DNA of 64,000 bases. Source: Eremomyces bilateralis CBS 781.70. Taxonomy: Eukaryota; Ascomycota; Dothideomycetes; Eremomycetales; Eremomycetaceae. The notes under the pieces are model-generated. The model was given only the letters and a program-made list of their open reading frames with translations, searched no databases and was not told where the DNA came from. Shown here in pieces: positions 4,951-57,403 of this stretch (its first letter is position 1; every line of letters starts with the position of its first letter). The stretch spans positions 273,514 to 337,513 of the forward strand of contig NW_022985067.1 in assembly GCF_010015585.1 (NCBI RefSeq). Reading direction: 5' to 3'. A program made the translations under genes and the position numbers.

Positions 4951-5688
4951 CTTCTACAGCCCTCAGCTTCATTGTCGATGAGCTACACAACATGGATGCT
5001 CTCATCCGTAGTACAAGCGAGGACCCCCCTGACCGTGGTAGCTTTATCCACTTTCTAAGGTCATTTTGGCAGCCAAACCAAGAGCGAGCACATTCAGTTC
5101 CTGAGCCAGGTATTTTGGAAGGCAATAGAAACCTTGCAAGCGGTGATCAAATTTTGAAACCCACGGCATGACACTGATATCTTCCCTGACTTCAGTCGGC
5201 CGTCCTTACAATCTATACTTTTCAGTCTATAGTCCGCCTTGTGTGAGCTTCGGAGGAAGGGAGCAGTACCGAGATAGCGGGAATCGGTTCGCTGATGCCA
5301 GTTGTTTTGATTGAGTGCAGTGCCTACGTGCTTGTTGTCACAGAATATCTGTATTTCTTGGCGTTTCCCCACGGCTTCATTCCGTATTCAATTCTATACC
5401 CCTATTCTTTCCCTTTATAGGGAATAGATCACCATTGTAAACCATATAAAGTAGCTGCAGGAACAGCCTGTTTTCGTACGGTTCCTGTTGGAAAGGCCTG
5501 GCGGAAGTTTGTGTTTCCAGAATAGTCTGGCATACCTTTGTACTAAGAAGAAAGAACACGGCAGTGTTAGGAACGCCTTTAAGACCGTGGTTACTCTGTA
5601 TTCTAATCTTGCTTTTCTATAGCTATCTCAATCTAAATGAGTTTGGTTCGGAGAAGCTTATGGTCCGTTAGTTCAACAGTTCCTGCTC

Positions 5689-5797
5689 TTCAGGATCAAG
5701 ATCAATCTATCTACGCTCTTTTGGAATCTAACGGTGTTTTCCCACTGTGTCGCTGCATTAATCACCTGATTGAGCGAAACCGCTATTTATCTCACAC
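5689..5797 (+). repeat. about 112-base segment shared with the 5' leader of the MULE at 54.55 kb
   Basis: From CAGGATCAAGATCAATCTAT to CCGCTATTTATCTCAC this matches 54551-54663 with only about six differences, nearly all transitions. In the MULE the segment lies just before the transposase ATG. Here it is embedded in the worn array with no transposase and no terminal inverted repeats. A short open frame crosses it but has no recognisable domain. Confidence 0.8.
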
Positions 5798-54140: not shown

Positions 54141-54149
54141 ATTAAATCC
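54141..54149. repeat. target-site duplication, left (ATTAAATCC)
   Basis: Nine bases identical to 57395-57403 directly flank the MULE. Nine-base duplications are typical of Mutator-like elements. Confidence 0.95.
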
Positions 54150-54320
54150 GGATGGTCCTGCGCGTACACGTAGGGTATTCTACACGTACACGCACCCAGT
54201 TTCTACGCGTACACGCACCCAATTACTAGACGTACACGTAGCCAAAAATGGTTAGCCTACTAATTTCTGTGACCACCAACTCGCTCAACGTGCAACTGCA
54301 GAACTCGCGGAAATGGTGAT
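54150..54320 (+). repeat. MULE left terminal inverted repeat
   Basis: 171 bases, 169 identical to the reverse complement of 57224-57394. It holds subterminal repeats ACACGTACACGCACCCA, GCGTACACGCACCCA and GACGTACACGTAGCC. Confidence 0.95.
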
Positions 54321-54550
54321 ATAGAAGTACTAGATATCAACTGTCAGAGATCAGAATGTCTCTGTTTTTCGGGGACCTCCAGTTTCCTACCCGTGACCCC
54401 ATATTCCTAACTATGACAACGCATCATGCATCCCGCGATGTTACCAGCCCCTCACTCTTTGCTTTTTCGCTCGTCTTGAGCAAGCCAAGGTCTCTAGGGC
54501 CATGAAATGTATACAGAACTTAAATATGGGCGTATTCCCGCAGGTTTTAT

Positions 54551-54663
54551 GCTCATCAGGATCAAGGTCAATCTATCTACGCTCTTTTGGAATCTAACGG
54601 TGTTTTCCCACTGTATCGCTGCACTAATCACCTGATTGAGCGAAACCGCCATTTATCTCACAT
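54551..54663 (+). repeat. MULE leader segment shared with 5.69 kb
   Basis: About 112 bases at roughly 95 percent identity to 5689-5797. It ends about 20 bases before the transposase ATG. It may be host DNA captured by the element, or the 5.69 kb copy may be a relic of an older relative. Confidence 0.8.
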
Positions 54664-54685
54664 CAACGCCAATCTTGTTCCGACT

Positions 54686-57173
54686 ATGGCTCTCCGCCCA
54701 ACTAATTCGTTGGGCCTAGTCCCGTATCTCGATTCGTCAGATTTTGATGGAAATGAGGAGGGAAGTGAGGAGGAAAGTGAGGCTGGAGATAGTGATATGG
54801 AGGAGAGCTTTGCGACTGCAGACGAGGAGATTAGCGATGAGGTCGACCAAGATATAGAGGACTTACCTAACTCCTTCTTCAACGACTTCCTAAATACGAT
54901 ACAGGAGGACTATATCAATCTTTCCGCCCCACCGGTCCAGCCTGATCAAGGGTGGAAAGATATCGACGATGCCTACCAATATCTCCTCCAATACGCGCGT
55001 GATCGGCATTTCGGTATCCGTAGAGGTAAGACCTTTACGGATAAGAACTGGGATGAGAAGGATCGTACCTGGTTCGAGTGCGATCGGTCCGGAAAGCCTC
55101 CAAAAATCCCGTCCTTAATCCGCAAGACTGGAAGTTCGAAAACCGGCTGTGGATGGGTGGTTAAGACCAAACTCGACCGTAATACGCGGCGTTGGGTTAT
55201 TCATACCATGGTTCTCGAGCATAACCATAGCATTGTCTCCTCGGCATCAGCTCACCGCAGCCACCGTAAATTGACTGTGGAACAGAAGCAGGAAATTGAC
55301 AAGATGACAATGGCTGGATGTACGCCAAAACAGATCTATAACGCCATCCTATCCGGCACAGATTTGATCAGGAGAGATATATATAATCGACGCGACTTTT
55401 TGAAGCTCCACCGCTTGAAAGGACAGTCCTATATTCAAGCACTTCTCCGGGAACTTAGCACGCGAACCGACCTAATCACCGGCCACCAATATGACCCAGA
55501 AACGAGGCGGATCACTCACCTTTTCTTCGCTCACCGGCGGTCCTTGGAAGTACTCCAAAACCAACATGATGTCTTGATCTTGGATTGTACGTACAAGACT
55601 AATAAGTACAAGATGCCTCTCTTCCATGCCGTTGGAGCAACGGCATCAAAGACAAACTTTGATATCGCGTTCGCCTTTATGAAGGGAGAGACCGAAGACG
55701 ACTATATTTGGGTATTAAGTCAGCTCAAAAGTGCTATAGGTATACTTCTTCCACGCCTAATACTCACGGATAGCGAGGACGCCTTGATCAATGCACTCGA
55801 GCTCGTTTTCGCCGGGATTCCGTGCCATCTATGTAATTGGCATATCTTTATGAATGTTAATACCAATCTCACGCGAAAGTTCGTACTTCCAAGACATCTT
55901 GATATCTTATATCCGACAAAGGCGCAAAGGGAGGACATGTCACAGGAAAATTACCTTAGCTATATCTGCCCTTCTACTAGCCTCCTAGTAGGGGCGTCCC
56001 TTTTTGGGGATTTAGCTTAGTTGGTTACATTTGACAGGACATGAGGAAGCTCCGTGCTCAATTTCTGAAAGATTTCAAGAAGGTAAGTGGCTCTAAAACC
56101 GCGGAGATCAAAGTGAGATCGAGCTATGAGATACGTACGTTGATATCTCTGGAAATGGCTATTTTGGAGACTCCGCGGTCCTAACACATACTTTGAGTTC
56201 GGGAATTTTGCTAACTATACGCTCACAGGTCGCTTACGCGAAAACTCCTAATGACTTCGATTCTGCGTACAATAAGCTCAAAGACGCCCACCACGACCAA
56301 CAACCCACTTTCGACTATATTGACCGATATGTCCTTCCTAAACGTGAGCGATTCGCCGCGGCGTGGACCGACCAACGAATCAATTGGGGGATACGGTCGA
56401 CACAGGGAGGAGAGAGCGCTCACGGCGTGATCAAGCAGCACGTTACAGAAGCAAATGGAGATTTGATGAATGTGACTACTCTGATACTCCAGGCGGTCGT
56501 ACAGAATGCCAATGAGTCTATTGCCGCCAACGATACGGCCTCTATTAGGACTTTAACGCGGTGGAGATGTAATTCAGTCATCTCTGACGACCTCCTCGAC
56601 AAGGTCTCCAAACCGGCCTTGAATTACCTGATGGAGCAGACTCAATTAGCTCGCGCGACTCTCCTTACCCGCCCTATACCTCTCCAGCCTTGTACAGGGA
56701 CTTTTGCTAAATCGAAGGGCCTACCGTGCTCCCATACTATTAGCGAGAACCTCCGGCGGAATAGAGACTGGCAGATTCCCCTTTCCTTGATTGATGAGCA
56801 CTGGCTATATTTCAGGAAGCCTGTCTTCGGTCCTGCACAGGATCCATTCCGCCATCTTCGAGAGCCTGCAATTCCTATCTCTCAGCGGACCGTTCGCCAG
56901 CCAGAGCTACAGGGCGTTGTCTTGGTCTCTCCATCTGGTGAACTCCAAGCCGCAGCCTCGCAGTCTACGACTACACCGCATGGCACGTCCTCTCATCGCG
57001 AAGAGGTTGGATTTGAAACCGCAGATCGAGAGGCTAATCGTGCTCCACGCCCACAGCCTATACCAAGGCAAAGGCGTGCGAGGGGAGCAAATCAAAGGCG
57101 TGGTACGGGAGCGACTCGCGGAGCGATCCAAAGGACCTCAGATGGTGGAGTTTTTATGACTCTCGACTTATGA
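54686..57173 (+). CDS. MULE transposase
   Basis: Three exons (54686-55987, 56038-56082, 56229-57173) give 763 residues. Intron 1 (50 bases, GTAGGG..GACAG) removes an in-frame TAG; intron 2 (146 bases, GTAAGT..CACAG) has a GCTAAC branch word, and all phases are 0. After an acidic N-terminus comes a FAR1/WRKY-GCM1-type zinc domain (FECDRS ... GCGWVVKT ... LEHNHSI). The MULE catalytic core follows: DDE-type Asp in LDCTYKTNK, Asp in LTDSEDALINA followed by the CNWHI CxxH element, and Glu in GGESAHGVIKQ. A SWIM-like zinc motif, CTGTFAKSKGLPCSH, follows. The tail is basic with RQRRARGANQRRG. It cuts and inserts the element using the TIRs. No disabling change seen. Confidence 0.9.
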
Positions 57174-57223
57174 TATATCTTTTATACTACACGTTCATTT
57201 CTCTATTATATATCTATCTCTAC

Positions 57224-57394
57224 ATCACCATTTCCGCGAGTTCTGCAGTTGCACGTTGAGCGAGTTGGTGGTCACAGAAATGAGTAGGCTAACCATTTTT
57301 GGCTACGTGTACGTCTAGTAATTGGGTGCGTGTACGTGTAGAAACTGGGTGCGTGTACGTGTAGAATACCCTACGTGTACGCGCAGGACCATCC
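57224..57394 (-). repeat. MULE right terminal inverted repeat
   Basis: Reverse complement of the left TIR with two mismatches; starts 50 bases after the transposase stop codon. Confidence 0.95.
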
Positions 57395-57403
57395 ATTAAA
57401 TCC
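57395..57403. repeat. target-site duplication, right (ATTAAATCC)
   Basis: Identical to 54141-54149. Confidence 0.95.

What the first reader, a model, noticed from the sequence alone, without database searches (positions are those of the whole stretch)
54150..57394. Apparently whole, recently inserted Mutator-like transposon
Seen directly: a perfect 9-base duplication, 171-base TIRs with two mismatches, and a transposase frame that is open across three exons after two in-phase introns. The DDE residues, FAR1-like zinc domain and SWIM-like motif are all visible. Most fungal MULE copies are decayed, so one with all parts may be active and could be mobilising smaller relatives in this genome.
Basis: partly seen in the sequence, partly recalled or inferred. 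Interest (0 to 1): 0.75.

Follow-up and report, generated by a model that had tools for sequence, protein, structure and literature searches.

The report
Jumping gene broken by smaller one
This is a real cut-and-paste transposon of a fungus with well-kept ends, but what looked like an intron in its enzyme gene is a smaller mobile element that landed in it, so the copy probably cannot move itself.

Summary
Pfam finds MULE and FAR1 domains: a Mutator-like element. It is not whole. 'Intron 1' lies in a 99-bp solo-LTR-like insertion (55938-56036, TG...CA, 5-bp duplication GGACA). Seven near-identical copies sit elsewhere; the 6 with both flanks readable each show their own 5-bp duplication. Both MULE relatives that I could align across the site, C31 and C13, lack it. 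It shifts the frame between the second catalytic D and the E; as it stands the frame stops after 444 codons. 'Intron 2' is supported: C13 has an intron at the same place. An older 321-bp LTR before the ATG is shared by three other MULE copies. No shorter two-TIR relatives were found. The 99-bp LTRs belong to a miniature family; the one paired relative shares LTR end and primer-site sequence with Copia elements of this genome. Ordinary kinds, but a useful correction.

The parts
54141..54149 (.). left 9-bp target site duplication ATTAAATCC
   Evidence: exact
54150..54325 (+). left TIR, 176 nt, with three 23-nt tandem repeats at 54178-54246
54337..54341 (.). 5-bp duplication TCAAC of the older LTR insertion
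54342..54662 (+). 321-bp solo-LTR-like insertion (TGTCAGAG...TCTCACA), at the same site in three other MULE copies
54663..54667 (.). second copy of TCAAC
54686..55937 (+). transposase, first coding stretch (FAR1, MULE domain with the two D's), up to the insertion
   Evidence: Pfam (searched as 54686-55936); homologues
55933..55937 (.). 5-bp duplication GGACA, left copy
55938..56036 (+).
   Evidence: 7 other near-identical copies, 6 of 6 with both flanks readable have their own 5-bp duplication; absent from C31 and C13 MULE copies:
56037..56041 (.). 5-bp duplication GGACA, right copy
56037..56082 (+). coding sequence that resumes after the insertion, frame shifted
   Evidence: contiguous with the preceding stretch in C31 and C13:
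56083..56228 (+). probable true intron (GTAAGT...CACAG)
   Evidence: C13 relative has a GTAAGC...CTAG intron at the same place; donor 8 of 9 to the recalled CAG|GTAAGT:
56229..57173 (+). transposase, last coding stretch (catalytic E, SWIM-like CxH)
   Evidence: open frame; homologues
57219..57394 (-). right TIR, 176 nt
57395..57403 (.). right 9-bp target site duplication ATTAAATCC

Best explanation
A Mutator-like DNA transposon (FAR1 / DDE / SWIM-like transposase, Hop-like by anatomy) integrated at ATTAAATCC. Its family had already taken up a 321-bp LTR just upstream of the transposase start and spread with it aboard. A 99-bp solo LTR, probably left by LTR-LTR recombination of a miniature Copia-dependent retroelement, came to lie between the second catalytic D and the E of this copy. 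It shifts the frame and leads to a stop 27 codons on. The copy is therefore most likely non-autonomous: its ends could still be moved by a transposase made elsewhere, but it probably makes none itself. Shown: ends, domains, insertions, duplications, empty sites. Inferred: loss of function, Copia as mover of the miniature family, whether the 99-bp LTR came before or after the MULE reached this site.
For: Ends. Domains. 99-bp unit: one search lists 22 rows = this copy, 7 near-identical copies, 2 rows that are the C31 flanks, 12 diverged relatives. Of the 7, six have both flanks readable and 6 of 6 have an exact, different 5-bp duplication; the seventh has N on one side. Of the 12 diverged ones, 7 show an exact 5-bp duplication in the printed flanks (by eye) and 5 do not. 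Two of two MULE relatives that I aligned across the site lack it: C31 (flanks 97-98% identical) and C13. Donor CTA|GTAGGG matches the recalled CAG|GTAAGT at 5 of 9, the real intron's at 8 of 9. A Helitron-type ORF runs into another 99-bp copy.
Against: No RNA data: a cryptic 50-nt splice inside the LTR would keep the frame with extra codons. dN/dS against this copy (0.56, 0.47, 0.20, 0.66) rests on 7 to 36 changes each and says little about this copy's present state. No full-length element of the 99-bp family was found, so 'solo LTR' rests on termini, duplications and relatives. 5 of 12 diverged relatives show no clean duplication. The more distant transposase places were not examined at the insertion site.
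Confidence: 0.9

Rival explanations
1. One reading: a whole, possibly active MULE whose transposase is spliced at two introns, the first being a 50-nt intron at 55988-56037.
For: The frame is open under that splice model and both sites have GT and AG.
Against: The 'intron' lies in a dispersed 99-bp mobile unit absent from both MULE relatives aligned across the site. Donor is weak and the acceptor's G belongs to the target duplication.
Confidence: 0.06
2. The 99-bp unit is an introner: a mobile element that makes introns where it lands.
For: It lies inside coding sequence here, and a Helitron-type ORF runs into another copy at C22; the copies are short and near-identical.
Against: Exact removal would need GT-AG borders 104 nt apart across the duplication and I find none at this site (read by hand). 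The AG is not supplied by the unit: present at the junction in 2 of 6 other copies. At the Helitron ORF it lies antisense.
Confidence: 0.02
3. The 99-bp unit is not an LTR remnant but an independent short mobile unit (for example a tRNA-like SINE or a MITE).
For: Short, with an A-box-like TAGCTTAGTTGG near its 3' end in 6 of 6 copies scanned; no full-length element of the 99-bp family was found.
Against: TG...CA termini with 5-bp duplications; a sister unit occurs as a pair about 300 bp apart, the first followed by a 14-mer (LTR end plus primer site) that also precedes Copia RT genes. Rfam and ARAGORN report no tRNA in the element or in the pair.
Confidence: 0.1

Closest known systems
Mutator-like elements, Hop group (group 35 in PMC6446971; passages seen)
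   Same: 9-bp duplication within the 8-11 bp given for MULEs; long TIRs within the 30-220 bp listed for a sub-group of plants, Phytophthora, Puccinia and fungi; FAR1 and SWIM-type motifs listed for that sub-group; DDE transposase of the MULE Pfam family
   Different: Transposase interrupted by a solo LTR; an older LTR carried between TIR and start codon; best long relatives only about 32-39% identical over part of the query. Placement on a tree not tested
Solo LTRs of miniature LTR retroelements (TRIMs)
   Same: TG...CA, 5-bp duplications, 85-99 bp, one paired relative with a primer-site-like sequence shared with Copia elements
   Different: No full-length copy found for the 99-bp family itself
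Helenus TRIMs (PMC10886601; abstract, passages and the Results section read)
   Same: Short, 5-bp duplications in fungi, box-A-like motif in the LTR, primer site of the Copia type, solo LTRs
   Different: The LTR here has no box B; the only box B lies in the internal part of one paired relative. The paper's fungal families are from Pucciniales and Agaricomycetes; this host looks like an ascomycete

Membership tests
Mutator-like element (MULE) | 8-11 bp target site duplication | tested here: met
   9 bp exact
Mutator-like element (MULE) | terminal inverted repeats | tested here: met
   176 nt, 98%
Mutator-like element (MULE) | MULE-type DDE transposase domain | tested here: met
   PF10551 E 3.9e-26, cut-off passed
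Mutator-like element (MULE) | uninterrupted transposase gene (autonomous copy) | tested here: not met
   99-bp insertion, frame ends after 444 codons; splicing not testable
Hop group | phylogenetic position of the transposase | not tested
   only anatomy compared
solo LTR (99-bp unit) | TG...CA termini and 5-bp duplication at many sites | tested here: met
   6 of 6 near-identical copies with both flanks readable; this copy; 7 of 12 diverged relatives
solo LTR (99-bp unit) | full-length two-LTR element of the same family | tested here: inconclusive
   none among 22 rows; one copy borders N; a sister family has one pair
Helenus TRIM | tRNA-like box A and box B inside the LTR | tested here: not met
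   box A present, box B absent in the LTR
Helenus TRIM | primer site of anticodon-loop type shared with Copia | tested here: inconclusive
   14-mer of the C21 pair shared with 3 loci upstream of Copia RT; the host's initiator tRNA was not found by recalled patterns
introner | exact splicing with one site from the unit and one from the duplication | tested here: not met
   no GT-AG borders 104 nt apart (by hand); AG at the junction in 2 of 6 others

The most novel reading that the evidence does not exclude
The insert belongs to an ascomycete lineage of Copia-driven miniature retroelements with a split RNA polymerase III promoter (box A at the end of the LTR, box B beyond the primer site). Such solo LTRs then lack box B and are silent, while they interrupt other transposons' genes (this MULE, perhaps a Helitron) and shut them down.
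Probability: 0.15. Interest if true: 0.5.

Novelty: new member of a known kind. Interest (0 to 1): 0.3.

Why it matters
It corrects an annotation trap: a recent solo LTR with a chance GT...AG can pass for an intron and make a dead transposon look alive. It also gives a nested series (old LTR in MULE, MULE in host, young LTR in MULE) and an in-genome link between a miniature LTR family and Copia elements in what looks like an ascomycete.

Tried and rejected
Introner reading of the 99-bp repeat: an early idea; rejected on splice borders. An 8-bp duplication (AGGACATG) was my first reading (note); comparison with other copies showed a 5-bp duplication plus chance matches. Initiator-tRNA check of the primer site by recalled patterns: 0 hits in three searches, so primer identity stays unproved. 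Rfam on the element and on L046: no tRNA or other convincing match; ARAGORN: none in the window or in the L046 pair. PDB search of the first coding stretch: none at E 0.001. The insert in C22's MULE copy was thought to be a full-length LTR element; its two end stretches share no repeat and its translations look to me like a LINE (from memory, not searched). dN/dS: six comparisons gave numbers and one (C13 last part) no alignment; C22 had no synonymous change and C13 only 42 codons aligned, so those two are not used. No structure prediction was run.

Full report
What is there. Positions 54150-57394 are bounded by 176-nt inverted repeats with three mismatches and by an exact 9-bp duplication, ATTAAATCC. 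A coding stretch from ATG 54686 carries Pfam FAR1 and MULE domains over their cut-offs. The protein search scored 3713 candidates and returned 69 relatives at E <= 0.001. The best long ones (P0001, P0002, P0008, P0012, P0017; 652-703 residues) are 32-39% identical over 48-77% of the query and are named as from Rhizophagus, Hirsutella, Fusarium, Puccinia and Metarhizium.

The first 'intron' is an insertion. A search of the genome with the whole element (40 of 77 candidates scored) showed a block at 55938-56037 that recurs at 99-100% identity elsewhere. A focused search (21 of 21 candidates scored) gave 22 rows: this copy, 7 near-identical copies on seven other contigs, 2 rows that are the flanks of the MULE copy on C31, and 12 diverged relatives at 80-90%. 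The unit is 99 bp, TGTCACAGG...TTTGACA. Six of the 7 near-identical copies have both flanks readable and 6 of 6 carry a different exact 5-bp duplication: GATCA, GCTGG, ATCTT, CAAAG, ATCCG, AATCG; the seventh has a run of N on one side. Here the duplication is GGACA. Of the 12 diverged relatives, 7 show an exact 5-bp duplication in the printed flanks (L041, L042, L044, L048, L049, L053, L054; read by eye); the other 5 (L043, L045, L046, L050, L051) do not, L043 matching at 4 of 5.

Empty sites. Of the sequences that I held, the MULE copy on C31 and the relative on C13 (55% identical in the first coding part, 45% in the last) cover this place; both lack the unit and read straight through. The more distant transposase places were not examined there. 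The donor CTA|GTAGGG matches the recalled consensus CAG|GTAAGT at 5 of 9 places, against 8 of 9 for the second intron and 7 of 9 for the C13 intron. Insert plus duplication is 104 bp, so the frame is shifted; read as it stands, the ATG frame ends after 444 codons, before the catalytic E and the SWIM-like motif.

The second intron is real. In the C13 relative the coding parts on either side are likewise separated by GTAAGC...CTAG, at the same place and of a different length. That relative has one stop codon in its last stretch. In the own genome the second intron's sequence matches only this copy and the C31 copy.

An older LTR. 54342-54662 is a 321-bp TG...CA unit with TCAAC on both sides. The same insertion at the same site is in the MULE copies at C1:2283274 and C22:383429 and, cut short with only its left border, at C34: 3 of 3 other copies that cover the site. 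Of four full-length copies outside MULEs among the 13 loci examined, two have exact 5-bp duplications (L016, L020) and two match at 4 of 5 (L015, L017). The MULE family therefore moved with this LTR aboard. The first 46 codons of the ORF from 54524 are LTR sequence; the ATG lies just beyond it.

Copies and age. TIR matches occur at five loci including this one (12 of 12 candidates scored). Only this one has both TIRs in the loci compared. The other copies are about 91-98% identical over the longer stretches, 81-88% in some TIR and short pieces, and are truncated, stopped or interrupted. Counted from this copy to the others, 69 transitions are G to A or C to T and 53 the reverse, with 48 transversions (summed from the seven rows): no strong RIP-like bias, though the direction of change is unknown. 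dN/dS against this copy is 0.56, 0.47, 0.20 and 0.66 in four comparisons, based on 7 to 36 changes each. A protein search of the genome with the first coding stretch listed 33 places, this copy included; 21 of the 33 have stops in the matched stretch and 12 do not. So a transposase of some relative could still act in trans; this was not tested.

What the 99-bp unit is. Sister units of 85 and 87 bp occur about 300 bp apart on C21, 89% identical to each other. The first is followed at once by GTTATGAGCCC, which I recall as complementary to the initiator-tRNA anticodon loop, the primer type that the Helenus paper calls dominant in fungal Helenus. The 14-mer ACAGTTATGAGCCC occurs 5 times in the genome and its reversed control 0 times. 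Of the four places other than C21, three lie 2.9-3.4 kb upstream, on the same strand, of one of the 9 Copia reverse-transcriptase matches; the fourth (C43:32362) does not. The tRNA itself was not found by three recalled patterns, which counts against the primer reading or against my recall. An A-box-like motif is in 6 of 6 near-identical copies scanned and in 5 of 12 diverged ones; a B box within 260 nt follows only the first C21 unit, 75 nt on, in the internal part. The C21 pair has no clear outer duplication, and its internal part was found nowhere else among 19 rows, so it may be a lone or chance pair.

Host. A neighbouring CoA-transferase is 73-76% identical to Xylaria proteins, and the named entries that I see in the 120 listed are ascomycetes. 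One gene is thin evidence; the host is probably an ascomycete of unnamed species.

Verdict. A genuine MULE copy with good ends, disabled in all likelihood by a recent solo LTR that mimics an intron. Known kinds throughout. For the literature I ran six searches. TRIM terms occur in papers that also mention ascomycetes (listing only). Helenus with TRIM and retrotransposon occurs in one held paper. A search for solo LTR, intron, introner and fung- together gave none.

Noticed in passing
54178-54246 and 57299-57367: Three 23-nt tandem repeats inside each TIR (CTACACGTACACGCACCCA-like): possible transposase binding sites.
   Followed up: no
L034 399-1599 (C22:325683): An ORF with a Helitron_like_N domain runs, in antisense, into another 99-bp copy; whether it continues beyond was not tested.
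   Followed up: partly
L046 1110-1585 (C21:299468-300038): Two LTR relatives of 85 and 87 bp about 300 bp apart with a Copia-type primer-site-like sequence and a B box: candidate miniature LTR element.
   Followed up: partly
window 5684-5796 (L029): A 96% match to the last 113 bp of the 321-bp LTR family, for which one search lists 40 rows (40 of 47 candidates scored), this copy included.
   Followed up: partly
L013/L081/L019 (C22:383946-389728): About 5.8 kb inserted in another MULE copy with a 7-bp repeat TATGGCT at its ends; looks like a LINE (the LINE label is from memory).
   Followed up: partly
G000 C43:32362: Fifth copy of the LTR-end plus primer-site 14-mer with no Copia RT downstream on its strand.
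   Followed up: no
G000 C1:2283781-2284506: A truncated MULE transposase piece lies in an open frame of 1498 codons.
   Followed up: no
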